DNA of 38,685 bases from an uncultured Pseudomonadota bacterium (GCA_903844155.1 CAIMSU010000321.1:1-38685), one strand, 5' to 3'. Shown: positions 17,569 to 29,868, numbered from the stretch's first letter. The notes: a model not told the origin generated them from the sequence alone. A program made the numbers and translations.

Positions 17569-20500
17569 TCACGAACAGCCGCTCGTCCCGCCGCAGGTCA
17601 TGCACTTCAGGCACGTCCCGTTGCGCACCATGGTCATCGCGCTGCAATCGGGGCAGGCGTCGCCCTCGTAGCCCTGGGCCTTGGCGTCCCGGATCGCGGA
17701 GGCGGCGCGGGCCATGCTCTTGGAAGCGGCGCTTTGGCCCTGCGTGCTTTGACCCGGCCCGGAGGCGTGCGCGTCCGATCGCGGCGGGATCGAGGCCCGG
17801 GGTGAGGCGGCGACGGTCGCGCTGACCCGCGGGGCGTCGTCGACGTTGATGGCAGCGTCGTTGATCATCACGCTGGAGATGGGCATGACCTCCTCGTCGG
17901 ACCAGGTCGGCTCCTCTTCGTGGTGCAGCGTGTCGTGGCGCAGCGCCTCGGGGTCGACGTGCGCGAGATCGCTTCGTCCAAGGTAGTTGATCGCCAGCTC
18001 GCGGAAGATGTAGTCGATGACGCTCGTGGCCATCTTGATGCGCGAGTTTCCCTTCACCATGCCGTTGGGCTCGAAGCGGCTGAACAGGAACTGGTCGGCG
18101 AAGCGCTCCAGCGGCACGCCGTGCTGCAGTCCGATGCTGATCGCGATCGCAAAACTGTTCATCAAGCTGCGGAAAGCGGCGCCCTCCTTGTGCATGTCGA
18201 TGAAGATCTCGCCGATGGACCCGTCCTCGTACTCGCCGGTCCGCAAAAACACCTTGTGACCGCCGACGATCGCCTTCTGCGTGTAGCCGCTGCGACGATC
18301 CGGCAACCGGCGCCGCTTGGCCAGGTACCGGATGATGACCTTCTCGGACATCTGCAATGCCTGCTCGGTGGGCGACTGCTGGAAGAACGCGTCTGCCGAG
18401 GGCAATTCGCCCGGCGCCGAAGGGCGCTCGCCTTCGCGCTCTGCCGTGTCGATGGCCGCGAAGAGATCGGCCGCGAACATCGAGGAGAGGGGCTGCGAGA
18501 GCTTGGATCCGTCGCGGTAGATCGCGTTCGCCTTGATCGCGAGGCGCCAGGACATCAGGTAGGCCTGCTTCACGTCCTCGACCGTTGCGTCGTTCGGCAT
18601 GTTGATGGTCTTGGAGATGGCGCCCGAGATGAAGGGCTGGCAGGCGGCCATCATGCGGATGTGGGCCTCGTAGCTGATGTATCGCACACCCGTGCGGCCG
18701 CAGCGGTTGGCGCAGTCGAACACGGCCAGGTGCTCGGGCTTGAGGTACGGGGCCCCTTCAAGCGTCATCGTGCCGCTGGCGAAGGCGTTGGCGGCGTCGA
18801 TCTGGCCGCGGGAGAAGCCGATGGCTTCGAGCAGATCGAAGCTCGGCTCGCCGAGCTGGGCGCTGGACAGCCCGAGCACGTCCCGACAGAACGCCTCACC
18901 GAGGGAGTGGCGGTTGAAGGCGAATTTGATGTCGAACGCACCCGGGAGGCCCTTCTCGATCTTCGCAAGCGTGCCGTCGTCAAAACCCTTCGCGCGCAGG
19001 GTGTCGTTGTTCACGCCGGGCGCGCCCTTGAGCGTGCCGTGCCCGAGCGCGTAGTAGAGGATCTCCTGGATCTGCGCGTCGGTGTAGCCGAGGCGCTTGA
19101 GCGCCGGGGGGACCGACTCGTTGGCGATCTTGAAGTAGCCGCCACCGGCCAGCTTCTTGAACTTCACCAGCGCGAAGTCGGGCTCGATTCCCGTCGTGTC
19201 GCAGTCCATGACCAGGCCGATGGTGCCGGTGGGCGCGATGACGGTGGTCTGCGCGTTGCGGTAGCCATGCGCTTCGCCGAGCTCGATGGCCTGATCCCAG
19301 GCGTTGCGGGCCGCGGCGAGCAGGTCCTTCGGGCATTTTTCGGGTGAGAGGCCGACGGGGCGGATGGTGAGGCCCTCGTACTCGGTCGCGGGCGCGTTGT
19401 AGGCAGCGCGGCGGTGGTTGCGCATGACGCGGAGCATGGGCTCGCGGTTCTTCTTGAAGCCGGGGAAAGGCCCTTTCTCCTTGGCGATGTGGGCGCTGGT
19501 CGCGTAGCTGTCGCCGGTGAGGATGGCGGAGAGGCCACCGCAGATGGCGCGACCGTCTGCGGAGTCGTAGGGGACGCCCATCACCATGAGCATCGCACCG
19601 AGGTTGGCGTAGCCGAGGCCCAACGTGCGGAAGTCCCAGGAGAGCTTGGCGATCTGCGGGCTCGGGTACTGCGCCATGCCGACGGAGATCTCGAGCACGA
19701 TCGTCCACAGGTGGATGGCGTGTCGGTAGCCGGCGATGTCAAACGCGCCGGTCTTCACGTCGTAGAACTTCATCAGGTTCAACGAGGCGAGATTGCACGC
19801 CGTGTCGTCCAGGAACATGTACTCGGAGCACGGGTTCGAGGCGTTGATCCGCCCGTCCTCCGGGCAGGTGTGCCACTCGTTGATGGTCGTGTCGAACTGC
19901 ACGCCGGGGTCCGCGCAGGCCCACGCCGCCATCGCGATGTCGTCCCACAGCTCTTTTGCCTGCATGGACTTGACGATCTTGCTGCTGTTGCGGTTGCGGA
20001 GGTGCCACTCCTCGTCGCGCAGCATCGCGTCCATGAACGCGTTCGGCACCCGGACGGAGTTGTTGGAGTTCTGGCCCGAGACCGTCGCATACCCCTCGCC
20101 GTCCCAGTCAGTGTCGTACGCCGGGAATTCGATGCCGGTGTAGCCCTGCTTCGCGAATTGCAGCGTGCGGACGATGTAGTTGTCGTTGACCCCCACCGCG
20201 CGCGCCTCGCGCATCGCCCTGCGCAACGCGGCGTTGTGGCGCGGATCGAAGCGCCGCGCGCCCAGCAGCTCGCCGTCCGCCCCCGCGTGGTCCTTGCACG
20301 CCACAATGACGGCGTTGAGGTGCTTCTGGTTGAGCTGCGAGCCGGTGACCAGCGCCGCGACCTTCTGCTCCTCGTGCACCTTCCAGTCCACGAACCGCTC
20401 GATGTCCGGATGATCGAGGTCCAAACACACCATCTTGGCAGCGCGCCGCGTCGTCCCACCGGACTTGATGGCACCCGCCGCCCGGTCCCCGATCTTCAGG

Positions 20501-21297
20501 AAGCTCATCAGCCCGGAGCTGCGCCCGCCACCCGAGAGTCGCTCGCCTTCGCCGCGGATCTTCGAGAAATTGGTGCCTGTGCCCGACCCGTACTTGAACA
20601 GGCGCGCCTCGCGCGTCCACAGGTCCATGATCCCGCCATCGTTGACCAGATCGTCCGCCACCGACTGGATGAAGCAGGCGTGGGGCTGGGGCCGCTCGTA
20701 CGACGACGTCGACGCGACCACCTTCTTCGCCTTCTCATCGAAGTAGTAGTGGCCTTGCGCGGGCCCGTCGATTCCGTAGGCCCAGTGCAGGCCGGTGTTG
20801 AACCACTGGGGTGAATTCGGGGCGCAGATCTGCGCTGCGAGCATGTACCGAAGCTCGTCGTAGAACGCCTTCGCGTCGTCCTCCGTCGAGAAGATGCCGT
20901 CCTTCCATCCCCAGTACGTCCAGCACCCGGCGAGGCGGTCGAACACCTGCCGCCCGTCGCGCTCCGGCCCATACCGGCGGTCGGCGCTCACGGCGGCGAT
21001 CGCCTCCTCATCCACCACGCGGCGGGAGAGCCATGCGGGCATGCCCTTTTCCGCCACCGGCTTGGTCGCGGCGGGAATCCCCGCCTTCCGGAAGTATTTC
21101 TGCGCGAGGATGTCCACAGCCACCTGCGACCAGCCGGCCGGCACCTTCACGTCCTCGGCCTCGAAAACGACGCTGCCATCGGGGTTCCGGATCTCGGAGC
21201 GACGGCTGACGAAGTCCAGCGTGTCGTACGGGGACGCCGCCTGCGTGGCGGGCAGGAACGGCTGGGGATCGGGGGTGAAGCGGCGGGCGATGTGCAT
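17569..21297 (-). CDS. nrdJ: Adenosylcobalamin-dependent (class II) ribonucleotide reductase
   Basis: A 1242-residue enzyme that reduces ribonucleotides to deoxyribonucleotides with B12 and without oxygen, supplying DNA precursors. Visible features: [12 protein letters not shown] (about 158-169), PHACFIQSV with Cys 208 of the redox pair, the thiyl-radical site NPCSEY with C490, a later [19 protein letters not shown] segment, and a C-terminal cysteine motif CPDC...CLKCMTCGG near residues 1215-1240 (zinc-ribbon and shuttle Cys). This is the long bacterial NrdJ type. The start MHIARRFTP is chosen at 21297; an in-frame ATG at 21360 would add 21 unlikely residues. An upstream promoter and two NrdR-like boxes are described separately. 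No nrdR gene lies in the window. Confidence 0.96.
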
Positions 21298-21399
21298 GGG
21301 GATCCGAGAGTGAGGGGCGAGGAAGGAGCCGCTGACGGGTTGGCGACCTGCTCGGCGCATGAGCGACGGCGGTCGTGCGGACCCGGACGGGGAACTGGC

Positions 21400-21435: not shown

Positions 21436-21483
21436 CCCCCACATATGGTGGCTTTCTTTTTGCCGACCCACTACATCATGTGT
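21436..21483. promoter_or_regulatory. Pair of NrdR-box-like sites upstream of nrdJ
   Basis: Two 16-mers, CCCCCACATATGGTGG (21436-21451) and CCACTACATCATGTGT (21468-21483), match the NrdR-box consensus acaCwAtATaTwGtgt at about 10 and 12 of 16 positions. They start 32 bases apart, close to three helical turns, the spacing known for the tandem boxes bound by the dNTP-sensing repressor NrdR. Their position just upstream of the nrdJ promoter fits repression or modulation of this operon. Confidence 0.6.
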
Positions 21484-21512: not shown

Positions 21513-21532
21513 TTATCCGCATGTTATCCATA
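21513..21532 (+). promoter_or_regulatory. Two DnaA-box-like 9-mers
   Basis: TTATCCGCA (21513-21521) and TTATCCATA (21524-21532) each differ by one base from the DnaA box TTATCCACA and lie 2 bases apart in direct orientation. In Escherichia coli the nrdAB promoter also carries DnaA boxes linking dNTP synthesis to replication. Here they lie about 120 bases upstream of the nrdJ promoter and 130 bases before the MerR gene. Confidence 0.4.
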
Positions 21533-21622
21533 ACGAAGTTGGATTGTTGGGATTTCAGGCGCCAAAGGCAGCGTTCCGGAGGCTTCGGGCCGGGTGCGCC
21601 GCGGGACCGTGAATCAAAAAGA

Positions 21623-21654
21623 AGTTGACATCAACTACTGTCATGTTTACAGTA
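21623..21654 (+). promoter_or_regulatory. Strong promoter with two dyads in front of the MerR gene
   Basis: A consensus -35 TTGACA (21625-21630), a 17-base spacer and -10 TACAGT (21648-21653) form a near-ideal promoter. Two perfect dyads overlap it: AGTTGACATCAACT (21623-21636) over the -35, and TACTGT-N7-ACAGTA (21636-21654) over the spacer and -10. Initiation six to seven bases past the -10 lands on the ATG at 21660, so the mRNA should be leaderless. The dyads are natural operators for the MerR protein itself (autoregulation is inferred). Confidence 0.7.
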
Positions 21655-21659
21655 TGGTC

Positions 21660-22169
21660 ATGCTCCCCGACCCCACCGTCCGCTACAGCCTGCCCGAGCT
21701 GGTCGACGCCGCCGGCGCCGTGCTCAGGGGTATGCCGGGGCTCGCCGGCGCCAGCGATCAGCGCGTCAACCCCGCGCCGGACGTGCGAACGCTCCGCTAC
21801 TACCAGAGCGTCGGGCTGCTCGACCGCCCGGAGAACGCGTGGCCGCGCGCCCAGTATTATGGGTATCGGCACCTGTTGCAGGTGGTCGCCATCAAGGCCC
21901 TGCAGGCCACGGGCGCGTCGCTGGGTCAGATCCAGACGGCCCTCGTCGGGCGGTCCGTCGCCGAACTTGAAGCGGCGATCCGCCCCGCGCTCGGCGCCTC
22001 GACGCCGCGCCCCGCACTCCCGGCGCAGCGCCCCCGCCTCGTGACCATCGAGCTGGCCCCTGGCCTTCTGCTCACCATCGACCCATCGCAGCACGACGTG
22101 GACGCCGTGCTCAGCAGCTTGTCCCCTGCACTTTCGCACCTTCCCTCAACCCCCGGAGCTCGCCCATGA
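21660..22169 (+). CDS. MerR-family transcriptional regulator
   Basis: A 169-residue DNA-binding regulator. The winged helix-turn-helix runs from about residue 8 to 75, with an extended loop between YSLPELVDAAGAVL and the recognition part VRTLRYYQSVGLL (42-54) and wing YGYRHL (67-72). A helical segment ALQATGASLGQIQTAL follows, then a Pro/Ala-rich linker and a short C-terminal element RLVTIELAPGLLLTI. No metal-binding Cys cluster is present, so it is not a mercury or copper sensor type. The ATG at 21660 is chosen because the promoter places the transcript start there; an ATG at 21654 overlaps the -10 region. Its stop overlaps the start of the VIT/vWA gene (ATGA), so the two proteins are made together. 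Confidence 0.85.
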   Translation: MLPDPTVRYSLPELVDAAGAVLRGMPGLAGASDQRVNPAPDVRTLRYYQSVGLLDRPENAWPRAQYYGYRHLLQVVAIKALQATGASLGQIQTALVGRSVAELEAAIRPALGASTPRPALPAQRPRLVTIELAPGLLLTIDPSQHDVDAVLSSLSPALSHLPSTPGARP

Positions 22170-24718
22170 CCACCCTCGCCGCCCCCGCCTGCCCCGTCTC
22201 CGTCCGCCCCACGCTCGCGACGCCCCATCCGCCCGCGAACGCGACGGACAACCCCGGCCTCGGCGGTCTCCTCGCGCTCCTGGACGGCCGCGAGACCGCC
22301 CTTCCGTTGTTGGAAGTGAAGGTCCGCACGCGCCTCACTGCGGTCGTCGCCCACACCACGGTGGAACAGCGGTTCGCCAACCCCGCGCGCGGGGGTCCCC
22401 GGACAGCGATGGAGGCCATCCACCTCTTCCCGATCCCCTCGCGGGGCGCCATCGTGGCCTGCGAGCTGCGCTGCGGCGAGGTGGTCGTGCGCGCGGTGTG
22501 CAAGGAGCGGCAGGAGGCGGAAGCGACGTTCGCCGACGCCCGCAGCCGCGGCAAGCGTGCGGCGCTGGTGACCCAGGAACGCGCCGACGTGCACACGCTG
22601 CGGGTGGCGAACCTGCCGTCCGGCGAGGAGGTCATCGTGCGCCTGGAGATCGTCGAGCGCCTGGACGCCGAGGATGGTCGCGTGGTCTGGCGTTTTCCGA
22701 CCGTCATCGCCCCCCGGTATCTGCCCGGACGGGAGACGGAATCGGGCGTTGGGCCGGGTGTTCTCCCCAATACGGATCGGGTCCCTGACGCTTCCCGCCT
22801 CGCCCCGCCGCTGCTCCTCGGTCCGGGCACGAAGCTCGATCTGGAGGTCACGCTCGACGGCACACCGGCGCGCACGGAGAGCTCCTTGCACGCGCTCTCG
22901 GTCTCGTTCGACGGCGGCCTTCGCATCGCCCCCTCCGGGGACGCTCGCTGCGACCGCGACTTCGTCCTCGCCGTCACCTGGGCCAACGCGGCAGGGCTGA
23001 GCAGCCGGGCGTGGACGGACGGCGCCTACACCCTCGTCCACGTCGAACCCCCGGCGGCGATCGGCGCGGGCCTCGGGCGAGACGCCATGTTCGTCGTGGA
23101 CATCTCGGGATCGATGGAGGGGACGAAGATCGACGCGGCACGCCGGGCGTTGACCGCCGCGCTGCACGGCCTGAACGCGGGGGACCGGTTCGCGCTGACC
23201 GCGTTTGACGATCGGCTGGAGCACTTCGCGCCGCAGGCCGCGGACGGATCTCCCGGCTTCGCGGTCTATGATTCGGCGAGCCTGGCCAGAGCGGACCGCT
23301 GGATCGCTGCGCTAAGGCCGCGGGGCGGGACGGAGATGCTGCCGGCGATCCAGGCGGCGCTGAAGGGGACGGTGCCCGCGGGTCGCCTCCGCAGCGTCCT
23401 GTTCGTCACGGACGGGCAGGCGCACAACGAGCAGGAGTTGGTCGCCGCGGTCGTGAATCGGCGCGTCGAAGCTGCTAAAGCCGGCGGCGAGGCCCGGTTC
23501 TTCACGCTCGGGATCGACACGGCGGTGAACGAGGCGCTCCTCGGTCGACTGGCGCGACTGGGCGGCGGCACGGCAACGTTCGCGACGCCCGCCGATGACA
23601 TCGAGGCGGTGGTCGCCAGGATGGAGGCGCGATTCGGGTCACCGATGGCGATCGACCTGAAGGTGTCGGGCGAGGGCGTCGAGGCCGCGAGGCCGGAAGC
23701 CGAGGCGCTTTACGCGGGTGTCAGCGTTGGCGTGCTGCTCAGGGGGGCGCCCGCACAGGTGGGGCTCAGCTACCGCACCCGGGGCGGGAACGAGGCGGTC
23801 GTGCTGACGACGACGACGTTGCCGGCGACGGATTCCCCGCTCGCGGCGCTCTGGGCACGCGAGCGCGTGGCGATGCTGGAGGACCGGCTGACGCTGAAGC
23901 CGTTCGAGGAGGAGGCGCTGCGGCCGGAGATCATCCGCGTTGCGCTCTCGGCCAGCATCGTGTCCCGATTCACGGCGTTCGTAGCGGTGGAGGAGAGCCG
24001 AACGGTGACGGGTGAACGGGTGACGGTCGTGCAACCCCACGCGCTGCCGGACCAGTGGGCAGCGCCCGGGGAGGTGATGCGGTCTGCGCCACCGCCCCCG
24101 GCAGCCTCAGGCGGCGCGGTGTACGCCAGCATGCGGGCGAGCGCGCCACGGGGCGTCCCCCAGGCCGGCCCGGCGCCGCGATCCCGCGCGATGCCCGCTG
24201 CCCCCGCAAAGAGCGCGTCCATCTTTGGCCGTGTCGCCAACCTGTTCCTTTCCGGCTCGGATGACGACACCGAGGCCGAGGAGAGCGCTCCCGCCGTACA
24301 CCACGCCTGCGAGCCGGCAGCCGCCCACTACGAGAGCGCGATGCAGCGTATTCCCGGCGCGGCGAGCCCCGACGCCGGCGGATCCTCCGACGCAGCGTCG
24401 TTCGCCGACTCCCACCTCGCCTCGACCCAGTCGGCAGACGGCAGCTTTGGCGGCGACGTGGACCGCACCGCGGCCGCGCTCCTCGTGCTGGTGCTCAACG
24501 GGAGCACGCGCACGTCCGGCCTTCGCAAGCGGAACGTCCAGAAGGCCGCCGCCTGGCTGCTTGCCCGCCCTGAAGCTGGGATTCCCACCTCGTCGGCGGC
24601 CCTGGCGCTCGCGGTGCTCTACGCGGCAGAGCGAGGCGAGGTGCCGAAAGGCCCTTGGCCGGCGCTCTACTCGGCCGGCTCCGAGGGCGCGATGCTCCGG
24701 GCGCACCCGCAGGGCTGA
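22166..24718 (+). CDS. VIT domain plus von Willebrand factor A domain protein
   Basis: An 850-residue protein with no signal peptide, so probably cytoplasmic. An inter-alpha-trypsin-inhibitor-like VIT domain spans about 45-175 (LLEVKVRTRLTAVVAHTTVEQRF..., then AVCKERQEAEATFADARSRGKRAAL). A vWA domain follows at about 305-480 with an intact metal-ion-dependent adhesion site: D312-I-S314-G-S316, a later threonine region, and FVTDGQAHN. After a low-complexity Pro/Ala region (about 640-740) the C-terminus has QSADGSFGGDVDRTAAALLVLVL...RKRNVQKAAAWLL, a helical module often found at the end of bacterial VIT-vWA proteins. It is translationally coupled to the MerR regulator. The biochemical role of bacterial VIT-vWA proteins is not established. 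Confidence 0.92.
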   Translation: MTTLAAPACPVSVRPTLATPHPPANATDNPGLGGLLALLDGRETALPLLEVKVRTRLTAVVAHTTVEQRFANPARGGPRTAMEAIHLFPIPSRGAIVACELRCGEVVVRAVCKERQEAEATFADARSRGKRAALVTQERADVHTLRVANLPSGEEVIVRLEIVERLDAEDGRVVWRFPTVIAPRYLPGRETESGVGPGVLPNTDRVPDASRLAPPLLLGPGTKLDLEVTLDGTPARTESSLHALSVSFDGGLRIAPSGDARCDRDFVLAVTWANAAGLSSRAWTDGAYTLVHVEPPAAIGAGLGRDAMFVVDISGSMEGTKIDAARRALTAALHGLNAGDRFALTAFDDRLEHFAPQAADGSPGFAVYDSASLARADRWIAALRPRGGTEMLPAIQAALKGTVPAGRLRSVLFVTDGQAHNEQELVAAVVNRRVEAAKAGGEARFFTLGIDTAVNEALLGRLARLGGGTATFATPADDIEAVVARMEARFGSPMAIDLKVSGEGVEAARPEAEALYAGVSVGVLLRGAPAQVGLSYRTRGGNEAVVLTTTTLPATDSPLAALWARERVAMLEDRLTLKPFEEEALRPEIIRVALSASIVSRFTAFVAVEESRTVTGERVTVVQPHALPDQWAAPGEVMRSAPPPPAASGGAVYASMRASAPRGVPQAGPAPRSRAMPAAPAKSASIFGRVANLFLSGSDDDTEAEESAPAVHHACEPAAAHYESAMQRIPGAASPDAGGSSDAASFADSHLASTQSADGSFGGDVDRTAAALLVLVLNGSTRTSGLRKRNVQKAAAWLLARPEAGIPTSSAALALAVLYAAERGEVPKGPWPALYSAGSEGAMLRAHPQG

Positions 24719-24836: not shown

Positions 24837-25418
24837 ATGCTCCGTTCTTCCGCTCGCTCCCTCGTCGCCCTCGCCATAGTTTCCCTCGCCGCGGCGCTGA
24901 CCCCGCGCACCGCCCACGCAGGCGTCGGCTTCACCGCTGGTGGATATGCCTATAGCGACGGGACGAATTTCGCGCCGAGCATCGACTACCGCGCGAAGGG
25001 CTGGCTCGTGCAGGTCCATCTCCTCGACCTCCTCGCCGGCCCCGCCGCTGGCGGCAAGTTTGGCGTGAACACGGGCCTGGACGTGACGAAGGAGGCCATG
25101 AAGCGGAAGGTTGGACCCGAGGTGGAAGGCGTCTTCATGCCGGGCCTCGGTTTTCGTGTCGCCGACAGCGGGATCTACGCGACCGGAGCAGGCGGCGGCA
25201 GCAGCGTCGGCTTCAACGTCATGGCCGAAGGGCGGTTGGGCGCCGAGATGAAGAAGGGGATCGGCTTCGGGATGTACGTCGTGCCCGCGGTCGGCATCTC
25301 CGACATCGGGGGCGGGAAGATCCGGCCCAACTACGGCGGCGGCGTCGAGGTGAGCGCGTGGTTTGCGGACGGCGGCGGGGGCGCGGCGGGCGGAGGGCGG
25401 CACGGACGGGGGCGATGA
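24837..25418 (+). CDS. Secreted glycine-rich beta protein of unknown function
   Basis: A 193-residue protein with a signal peptide (1-28, ending TAHA then GVGF). The mature part is rich in Gly, aromatic residues and alternating hydrophobic residues (GFTAGGYAYSDGTNFAPSIDY, GKFGVNTGLDV, GIGFGMYVVPAVGISD), which suggests outer-membrane or periplasmic beta structure. The tail is Gly/Arg-rich. I do not recognise the family. The preceding 118 bases hold no gene and no clear promoter. Its stop overlaps the thioesterase start (ATGA at 25415-25418), so they form one transcript. Confidence 0.7.
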   Translation: MLRSSARSLVALAIVSLAAALTPRTAHAGVGFTAGGYAYSDGTNFAPSIDYRAKGWLVQVHLLDLLAGPAAGGKFGVNTGLDVTKEAMKRKVGPEVEGVFMPGLGFRVADSGIYATGAGGGSSVGFNVMAEGRLGAEMKKGIGFGMYVVPAVGISDIGGGKIRPNYGGGVEVSAWFADGGGGAAGGGRHGRGR

Positions 25419-25900
25419 ACGTCGATAAACCTGAAGTCCCGGTCCTGCGCACGCGCGTGGAGATGACGCAGCTCGTCCTCCCCGAGCATACCAACGCGAT
25501 GGGGACCATCTTCGGCGGGCAGGTCGCGGCGTGGATCGACATCTGCGCCGCGATCTCGGCACAGCGCTTCTGCCGTCGCCAGTGCGTGACGATCGCGATT
25601 GACAGCCTCGAATTCCTCCATCCCATCCAGCGGGGTCACATCGCCATCTTCCAGGCCTGCGTGAACGCGGCGTGGGGCAAGTCGATGGAGATCGGGGTGC
25701 GCGTGGAGGGCGAAGATCCGATGACGGGCGACCGGACGCACACCGCGAGCGCCTACTGCACCTTCGTGGCGTTGGACGCCAATGGTCGGCCGACGATCGT
25801 CCCGAAGCTGCTCTGCGGGACGGAGGACGAGCTCCGCCGACGGGCAGAGGCGGAGATCCGGCGCGGAGATCGGCTGCGACGGGCCAATCGGGCTCCGTAG
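25415..25900 (+). CDS. Acyl-CoA thioesterase, hotdog fold (YciA/BFIT-like)
   Basis: A 161-residue single hotdog domain enzyme that hydrolyses acyl-CoA to free acid and CoA. The N-terminal block VEMTQLVLPEHTNAMGTIFGGQVAAWID has the HxNxxGTxFGGxxxxWxD motif that contains the catalytic Asn-Asp pair of the YciA/acyl-CoA thioester hydrolase family; SMEIGVRVEGEDPMTGDRTHTASAYCTFVALD follows as the second strand pair. The start at 25415 is fixed by the ATGA overlap; the open frame reads further upstream inside the secreted-protein gene. Chain-length preference unknown. Confidence 0.93.
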   Translation: MNVDKPEVPVLRTRVEMTQLVLPEHTNAMGTIFGGQVAAWIDICAAISAQRFCRRQCVTIAIDSLEFLHPIQRGHIAIFQACVNAAWGKSMEIGVRVEGEDPMTGDRTHTASAYCTFVALDANGRPTIVPKLLCGTEDELRRRAEAEIRRGDRLRRANRAP

Positions 25901-25924: not shown

Positions 25925-25953
25925 TTGCGACGACGCGGGGAACCGCGTAGGGT
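25925..25953 (+). promoter_or_regulatory. Possible promoter of the long MopE lipoprotein gene
   Basis: TTGCGA (25925-25930) and TAGGGT (25948-25953) are 17 bases apart; initiation near 25960 would leave a short leader containing CGGAG (25962-25966), seven bases before the ATG at 25973. Confidence 0.4.
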
Positions 25954-25972
25954 TCTGCTATCGGAGTCCGCC

Positions 25973-28884
<2,912 letters not shown>

Positions 28885-28888
<4 letters not shown>

Positions 28889-29868
28889 TCCTGCTGCTGC
28901 AAGGCTGCCTGCTCGACAAAGCTGGCTACCTCGCGGCCCGTGCGCTGCTCACGGACGACGATCACGACGGCTACTCCGAGTCCGAGGGCGACTGCGACGA
29001 CGCCAACCCGTCCCGCTACCCTGGCGCGACGGAGTCCTGCGACGGCGTCGACAACGACTGCGACGGCCTGGTCGATGAGGATGGCGGCGGCCCCATCACG
29101 TACCCTGACGCGGACGGGGATGGCTACGGCGACGCCGCGAACCCCTCTGACGCGTGTGTCCCACCGGCCACCAACAACGCGCTCGGCGGCGACTGCGACG
29201 ACACCCGCGCCTCCATCCACCCCGACGCCGTAGAGACCTGCGACGGCGTCGATCAGGACTGCAACGGCGTGATCGACGACAACGCGACCGACGCCCCATC
29301 CTGGTACGTGGACGCCGACGGGGATGGGTATGCCGCCGGGCCCGACAATTCGGTGAAGTCCTGCACCCAGCCCGACGGGTACACCGCCAGTCAGGACACG
29401 CTTGACTGCGACGACAGCAACCCGAGCGTGTACCCAGGCGCGCCCGAGGTGTGCGGGGACGGTGTGATCAACGACTGCAATGCGACGGATGAATGTCGGT
29501 ATGAGGGGCTGAGCGAGCCGGGCGACCTGACCATCTACGCGGACTCTCCGTTCGGTGCTCTGTGGGTGGGGACCGGTCAGGAGTTCCGACACGCCGATGC
29601 TGACTTGATTCTCGGCATTGGAAGTGATGATGCGGCCGGAATCGCAATCTATGATGGCCCCATAGCGACCTCCACCCCGCTCTCCGCGGCCACGGCTGAA
29701 TGGGAGTTCGCGACGTCGGGAGTCCCCCTTCTGGTCCTCCGCCACTCCGACACCGGCTCGTTCGACGGCCTGCTTGCGCGCTCGGACAGCACCAACGCGG
29801 TCGTTCAACTCGACTTGGCGGGGGGGCGCCGTCGCCGACCAACCAGCTTGGCTGCTTCCATCCGGTGA
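28885..29868 (+). CDS. MopE-repeat/FG-GAP lipoprotein, 5' part of a frameshifted gene
   Basis: The first part of a gene that continues to 30727 in another frame. Starting at GTG 28885 (GTGA overlap with the previous stop) it reads MILLLQGC, a short signal with lipobox LQGC; a GTG at 28843 would give a longer, more normal signal. Three MopE-type units (about 20-190, with GDCDDANP and CDGVDNDCDG) are followed by the first propeller strands. The frame is broken in a G7 run at 29820-29826: with six Gs the protein would read LDLAGGAVAD and go on without interruption; as written it becomes LAGGRRRRPTS and stops at 29868. Read with the next entry. Sequencing error, phase-variable tract and true mutation are all possible. 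Confidence 0.75.

What the first reader, a model, noticed from the sequence alone, without database searches (positions are those of the whole stretch)
21623..24718. Leaderless MerR regulator coupled to a VIT/vWA protein under a dyad-rich promoter
A near-consensus promoter (TTGACA, 17 bases, TACAGT) places the transcript start on the MerR ATG. Two perfect dyads (AGTTGACATCAACT and TACTGT-N7-ACAGTA) lie over the -35 and over the spacer/-10. The MerR gene overlaps a VIT plus vWA gene (ATGA) whose MIDAS motif is intact and which has no signal peptide. VIT-vWA proteins are known in animals (inter-alpha-trypsin inhibitor, PARP4), but a bacterial regulator plus cytosolic VIT-vWA pair is a plausible undescribed two-gene stress or chaperone-like system.
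Basis: partly seen in the sequence, partly recalled or inferred. Interest (0 to 1): 0.65.

Follow-up and report, generated by a model that had tools for sequence, protein, structure and literature searches.

The report
MerR switch wired to VIT-vWA protein
A small DNA-binding protein and an internal bacterial relative of the human vault and inter-alpha-trypsin-inhibitor proteins form a two-gene unit with a nearly unchanging DNA switch, kept across many bacteria; I found no description of it, and its trigger is unknown.

Summary
The MerR gene (21660-22169) and the VIT-vWA gene (22166-24718) overlap by ATGA. The same pair occurs in about 30 genomes of the class, in other classes of the phylum, and in Nonomuraea (Actinomycetota). 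Upstream of merR lies a conserved promoter/operator, TTGACAGTAATTACTGTCATGTTTACAGTAA. It is 79% identical between species, against 28% just upstream. It contains -35 and -10 with a 17-bp spacer. A start codon follows the -10 by 6-8 nt in 27 of 29 loci. No merR start (0/40) has a Shine-Dalgarno-like tetramer, whereas 35/36 VIT-vWA starts do; this supports leaderless merR mRNA. The operator has no second copy in the window's genome, and almost none in relatives beyond chance, so the regulator appears dedicated to this pair. TACTGT-N7-ACAGTA is the deeply conserved dyad; AGTTGACATCAACT is peculiar to the window. MerR-coupled VIT-vWA proteins lack signal peptides and keep the MIDAS. Unpaired relatives nearly all lack an upstream MerR, and most are secreted. 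Best reading: an autorepressor that controls a cytosolic MIDAS scaffold protein. Repression, effector and function are inferred. The stress/chaperone idea was not tested. Novelty: new variant of a known kind.

The parts
21625..21655 (+). Conserved promoter/operator block (family consensus TTGACAGTAATTACTGTCATGTTTACAGTAA)
   Evidence: 27/31 match in the window; 25 of 29 class loci match at 20/31 or better; 79% mean pairwise identity against 28% upstream in 23 non-redundant loci
21625..21630 (+). -35 hexamer TTGACA
   Evidence: position 17 bp from -10 kept in relatives
21636..21654 (+). Dyad TACTGT-N7-ACAGTA, the conserved MerR-type operator candidate, overlapping spacer and -10
   Evidence: perfect and with no other site at 0-1 mismatch in the genome; conserved in class
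21623..21636 (.). Dyad AGTTGACATCAACT over -35: real but specific to the window; degraded form of the family palindrome TGACAGTAATTACTGTCA
   Evidence: sequence against relatives
21648..21653 (+). -10 hexamer TACAGT (also part of the third half-site ACAGTA)
   Evidence: positions 25-29 of the block invariant in 25 loci
21660..22169 (+). merR-like regulator, 169 aa, no cysteine, predicted leaderless start at 21660
   Evidence: Pfam MerR_1; start position conserved; AF2 model pLDDT 88
22155..22158 (+). SD-like GGAG, 7 nt before the VIT-vWA ATG, inside merR
   Evidence: SD-like tetramer at 35 of 36 VIT-vWA starts, 0 of 40 merR starts
22166..24718 (+). VIT-vWA protein, 850 aa, ATGA overlap with merR
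   Evidence: overlap of 4 nt in 34 of 36 loci (start chosen as nearest to that point)
22310..22648 (+). VIT domain
   Evidence: PF08487 over cut-off
23087..23581 (+). vWA domain with MIDAS (DISGSM 23099-23116, T389 codon 23330, D416 codon 23411)
   Evidence: PF13768; MIDAS residues invariant in 31 sequences
24386..24703 (+). C-terminal helical domain of the VIT-vWA protein after a disordered linker
   Evidence: AF2 model helices 741-846; 56% mean column identity in 17 relatives

Best explanation
A two-gene, self-contained regulatory unit. A strong promoter with the optimal 17-bp spacer makes a leaderless mRNA that starts on or within a nucleotide or two of the merR start codon. MerR binds the dyads embedded in that promoter and represses it (autorepression), so the operon is kept low and can be switched on. 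merR is translated without an SD. The VIT-vWA cistron is reached by a 4-nt overlap plus an SD-like site inside merR, tying the two products together. MerR appears to serve this operon only. The VIT-vWA product is a cytosolic MIDAS (metal-dependent protein-binding) scaffold of the PARP4/ITIH/VWA5A architecture, made in quantity when MerR lets go. Shown: anatomy, conservation, operator specificity, coupling, cytosolic form. Inferred: repression rather than activation, the effector, and what the VIT-vWA protein binds.
For: Pair adjacent in 36 of 40 merR loci; of the other four, L096 and L116 stop at a contig end. Start codon 6-8 nt after -10 in 27 of 29 class loci, exactly 6 in 23. The same layout (TTGACA, 16-18 bp, -10, 6-7 nt, ATG/GTG) occurs in distant members with a different operator sequence and in Nonomuraea. 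SD-like tetramer at 0 of 40 merR starts, 35 of 36 VIT-vWA starts. Operator block 79% identical against 28% upstream and 36% in early coding sequence. In the window's genome no other site with 0-1 mismatch. Class-wide, sites outside the merR locus are about as frequent as for the reversed pattern; the one perfect second copy, in G030, is a contig-end overlap. In 7 of 8 distant genomes the merR operator is found, with nothing else at 2 mismatches or fewer. MerR and VIT-vWA distances correlate, r = 0.74 within class I, best of 2000 permutations 0.26. No other neighbour conserved. Paired VIT-vWA lack signal peptides, most unpaired ones have them; paired/unpaired needs 2 changes on the tree against 24.6 shuffled. 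Fold closest to ITIH1, E 1.9e-30; profile match to PARP4 3.6e-62.
Against: No expression, binding or 5'-end data. The spacer argument for repression is indirect. The MerR model lacks the long dimerisation helix of classical MerR proteins, so dimer binding is assumed from the dyads. One close homologue (G038, L100) and one distant one (G279, L120) have no VIT-vWA next door. One paired locus (L109) has a changed promoter region, and the operator was not recovered by pattern in G105.
Confidence: 0.7

Rival explanations
1. Classical MerR activator: MerR sits on the promoter and, when it binds its effector, twists the DNA to activate transcription of its own operon.
For: MerR_1 domain; operator lies between -35 and -10 in distant members, as in MerR/CueR promoters.
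Against: Spacer is 17 bp in 35 of 40 loci (16-18 in the rest, by best-fit choice) instead of 19-20; hexamers near consensus, so the promoter should fire without help; no cysteines in the window protein and no long coiled-coil helix.
Confidence: 0.13
2. Toxin-antitoxin or defence-like pair: MerR is an autoregulating antitoxin and the VIT-vWA protein the toxic or defence effector.
For: Small DNA-binding gene first, overlapping larger gene, several operator half-sites over the promoter, patchy presence (31 of 71 genomes).
Against: No PADLOC match; VIT-vWA has no enzymatic domain in Pfam; both trees group the same relatives, so inheritance is largely joint rather than recently mobile; no defence neighbours shared.
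Confidence: 0.07
3. Feedback by contact: the VIT-vWA protein itself is the MerR effector (co-repressor or anti-repressor), so the pair senses the occupancy of the VIT-vWA protein. This is a refinement of the best explanation rather than an exclusive alternative.
For: MerR serves only this operon. In the distant subgroup MerR's variable linker has an invariant FW (9 of 9, usually preceded by R) and 7 of 8 partner VIT-vWA proteins end in FWK/FWR or, in Nonomuraea, FWKRG, whereas 16 of 16 unpaired VIT-vWA proteins have none. The conserved C-terminal strand-strand-helix module of MerR has no solved match.
Against: The window's own subgroup lacks the FW motif in both proteins; the motif could instead bind a third partner or a membrane; no complex was modelled.
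Confidence: 0.25

Closest known systems
CvkR, MerR-type repressor of type V-K CRISPR-associated transposons (PMC9938897)
   Same: MerR-type repressor translated from leaderless mRNA; palindromic motif in or over core promoters; acts on the neighbouring module
   Different: Different targets (cas12k, tnsB); motif AnnACATnATGTnnT; no VIT-vWA; not in an overlapping operon with its target
Cytosolic VWA5A / Dictyostelium Vwa1 family of VIT-vWA proteins (PMC10539598)
   Same: Intracellular, same VIT-hybrid-vWA order, C-terminal extra domain; bacterial intracellular members already placed in clade B1
   Different: That work reports no regulator or operon in the parts read; eukaryotic Vwa1 works with an F-box protein. 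Homology of the C-terminal domain was not shown here (one search found no match)
Inter-alpha-trypsin inhibitor heavy chains and PARP4
   Same: Closest solved folds and profiles; MIDAS present
   Different: Secreted or vault-associated animal proteins with other domains
TIGR03788 marine proteobacterial sortase-target protein
   Same: VIT plus vWA over residues 50-633, 328 bits
   Different: Below the curated cut-off of 551.65; no signal peptide; no MerR in the family definition
Classical MerR/CueR/CadR regulators
   Same: Winged-helix MerR DNA-binding domain
   Different: 19-20 bp spacer activation, cysteine metal sites and long dimer helix all absent

Membership tests
MerR superfamily (DNA-binding domain) | MerR winged-helix HTH with RYY motif | tested here: met
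   MerR_1 32 bits over cut-off 21.6; RTLRYYQ conserved; model has helix-turn-helix and wing
Classical MerR transcription activators | 19-20 bp spacer between -35 and -10 | tested here: not met
   17 bp in 35 of 40 loci, none over 18
Classical MerR transcription activators | Cysteine metal ligands or redox cysteines | tested here: not met
   No cysteine in the window protein
Classical MerR transcription activators | Long antiparallel dimerisation helix after the DNA-binding domain | tested here: not met
   AF2 model: short helices 88-95 and 100-107, then linker and strand-strand-helix (single chain, prediction only)
MerR-type repressors with promoter-overlapping operators (CvkR, CarH-like) | Palindrome overlapping core promoter | tested here: met
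MerR-type repressors with promoter-overlapping operators (CvkR, CarH-like) | Represses transcription | not testable with these tools
   needs expression data
VIT-vWA family (PARP4/ITIH/VWA5A) | VIT then vWA domain in one chain | tested here: met
   whole-chain fold match to ITIH1
VIT-vWA family (PARP4/ITIH/VWA5A) | Intact MIDAS | tested here: met
   D312, S314, S316, T389, D416 invariant
VIT-vWA family, intracellular branch | No signal peptide | tested here: met
   paired members lack one, most unpaired ones have it (hydrophobicity heuristic)
Marine sortase-target proteins TIGR03788 | Score over curated cut-off | tested here: not met
   328.1 against 551.65 bits
Toxin-antitoxin or defence system | Known defence or toxin domain | tested here: not met
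   no PADLOC hit; Pfam shows VIT and vWA only
Leaderless genes | Start codon at the transcription start, no SD | tested here: inconclusive
   Start 6-8 nt after -10 in 27 of 29 loci, 0 of 40 with an SD-like tetramer; 5' end not mapped

The most novel reading that the evidence does not exclude
A conserved bacterial sensing circuit in which a cytosolic VIT-vWA scaffold reports its own occupancy to a dedicated, leaderless MerR by direct contact. In one branch the contact would use a shared FW[K/R] motif found in the MerR linker and at the VIT-vWA C-terminus, so the two compete for one docking groove.
Probability: 0.22. Interest if true: 0.8.

Novelty: new variant of a known kind. Interest (0 to 1): 0.58.

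Why it matters
VIT-vWA proteins in animals (PARP4, ITIH, VWA5A) still have poorly understood intracellular roles. A compact bacterial operon with a regulator that appears dedicated to it gives a genetic handle: find what makes MerR let go and one learns what the VIT-vWA protein is for. The unit is also a clear case of deeply conserved leaderless expression with the operator built into the promoter, kept between Actinomycetota and a Myxococcota-like phylum even though the operator sequence has changed.

Tried and rejected
Second operator copy in G030 (C74): a contig-end overlap of the same locus, at least 130 bp shared. Conserved third gene: none beyond 5 loci. Within the genus a secreted protein and a thioesterase-like gene follow in two genomes only. 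Defence system: no PADLOC hit. Riboswitch or RNA element: no Rfam match in the window. C-terminal helical domain: no convincing PDB or Pfam match (weak resemblance to squalene-cyclase repeats). MerR upstream of other VIT-vWA genes: 2 of 40 flanks have a detectable one (L135, L153) and several other flanks are short. Effector from fold search of MerR: only the DNA-binding part matched, E no better than 0.03. Searching around Nonomuraea in other Actinomycetota was not possible.

Full report
What is there. The window carries a MerR-like gene and a VIT-vWA gene with an ATGA overlap. The promoter is TTGACA (21625), 17 bp, TACAGT (ends 21653), and the MerR start codon at 21660 lies where transcription should begin. 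The dyad TACTGT-N7-ACAGTA at 21636-21654 is perfect, and no other site with 0 or 1 mismatch exists in the 8.1-Mb genome. The window protein has no cysteine.

Conservation. A search of 71 genomes of the class found the MerR in 31. Neighbouring DNA shows the VIT-vWA gene directly downstream in 36 of 40 merR loci examined across the phylum; of the other four, L096 and L116 end at a contig edge. MerR and VIT-vWA overlap by 4 nt in 34 of 36 loci (the start was picked as the nearest to that position, but an in-frame start codon at exactly that place is not expected by chance). The pair also occurs in Nonomuraea gerenzanensis, an actinomycete. Record titles of the nearest relatives (Myxococcales bacterium, uncultured proteobacterium) suggest a Myxococcota-like organism.

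The switch. Aligned on the -10, the 29-bp block from -35 to -10 is 79% identical between 23 non-redundant loci, against 28% for the 75 bp upstream (chance level) and 36% in early coding sequence. Its consensus, TTGACAGTAATTACTGTCATGTTTACAGTAA, holds three half-sites: ACAGTAA, TTACTGT and ACAGTAA. The first two make an 18-bp palindrome with flanks (TGACAGTAATTACTGTCA); the last two make the TTACTGT-N7-ACAGTAA dyad. The window keeps the second dyad and has lost the first.

Distant members. They use a different operator, near TGACACTGTCATATGACAGTGTCA (a perfect 24-bp palindrome in G140), still inside TTGACA - about 17 bp - -10 - 6 or 7 nt - start. Operator and leaderless layout have thus been kept while the recognised sequence changed.

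Specificity. In the class-wide pattern search, hits away from the merR locus are about as frequent as hits to the reversed control pattern. The one perfect second copy is an assembly overlap. In 7 of 8 distant genomes, one of them a single contig, the operator at merR was found and nothing else within 2 mismatches; in G105 the pattern did not recover it. MerR is therefore most likely a single-operon regulator.

Translation. An SD-like tetramer lies before 0 of 40 merR starts and 35 of 36 VIT-vWA starts. The start codon is 6-8 nt after the -10 in 27 of 29 class loci. Both point to leaderless merR and coupled, SD-assisted VIT-vWA. The SD count on the merR side is partly forced by the operator lying there.

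The VIT-vWA protein. The model (pLDDT 76; low in the linker and N-terminus) matches the ITIH1 heavy chain over 632 alignment columns, E 1.9e-30. A family profile matches PARP4 (3.6e-62) and ITIH4 (1.6e-57). MIDAS residues are invariant. Of the unpaired VIT-vWA genes in the same class, most encode N-terminal signal-like segments, whereas paired proteins do not. Paired and unpaired fall apart on the tree with 2 changes (shuffled mean 24.6). Intracellular bacterial VIT-vWA proteins were already noted (PMC10539598); their coupling to a MerR was not found in the papers searched.

A shared short motif in the distant subgroup. The MerR linker there is variable apart from an invariant FW, usually followed by K or R (9 of 9: 8, plus G140). 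Seven of 8 partner VIT-vWA proteins end in FWK, FWR or FWKRG. None of 16 complete unpaired VIT-vWA proteins has FW anywhere, and the window's subgroup has no such tail or linker motif. Common descent inflates these counts. Competition for one docking groove is the suggestion, not a result.

Mechanism. A near-consensus promoter with a 17-bp spacer does not need MerR-type DNA distortion, so I read MerR as an autorepressor (inferred; about 0.7 with the rest of the model). The closest precedent is CvkR, a leaderless MerR-type repressor (PMC9938897). Release frees production of a cytosolic MIDAS scaffold. Metal or thiol sensing by cysteines is unlikely since the window MerR has none. The effector is unknown; the VIT-vWA protein itself is a candidate.

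MerR and VIT-vWA trees agree: the same pairs and clades recur, and Nonomuraea lies within the distant group in both. Distance correlation is 0.74 within class I (best of 2000 permutations 0.26). Part of this is simply shared species history.

Limits: draft genomes, one actinobacterial example, no expression or binding data, single-chain models only.

Noticed in passing
window 17569-21360 (-) and 21439-21480: Class II B12-dependent ribonucleotide reductase gene, divergent from merR. Two NrdR-box-like palindromes 32 bp apart (CCACATATGG 21439-21448, CTACATCATG 21471-21480) lie between them, read by eye against the remembered NrdR consensus.
   Followed up: no
window about 21513-21536: Two DnaA-box-like 9-mers (TTATCCGCA, TTATCCATA) between the reductase and merR, read by eye.
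   Followed up: no
L109 (G068) upstream of merR: Operator region rearranged: TGACAGTAAAAATATACTGTTGACAGTAA, with the start codon about 47 nt away; the pair is kept.
   Followed up: partly
L100 (G038): Orphan relative of the MerR (nearest L093/L103) without a VIT-vWA neighbour and without the operator.
   Followed up: partly
window 24838-25900: Signal-peptide protein and acyl-CoA thioesterase-like gene downstream; the same order is visible in L005 but not conserved beyond.
   Followed up: partly
window 25925-29868: Two long proteins with MopE-type copper-binding repeats.
   Followed up: no
L005 (CALQBK020000031.1): Record titled Bifidobacterium breve carries a contig very close to the window's genus; the title is probably wrong.
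   Followed up: no
L121 (NZ_LT559118.1): 11.85-Mb Nonomuraea record listed as a plasmid; it looks like a chromosome.
   Followed up: no
L150, L152, L154, L159, L149, L158: A further clade of VIT-vWA proteins without MerR; most look cytosolic (no clear signal peptide).
   Followed up: partly
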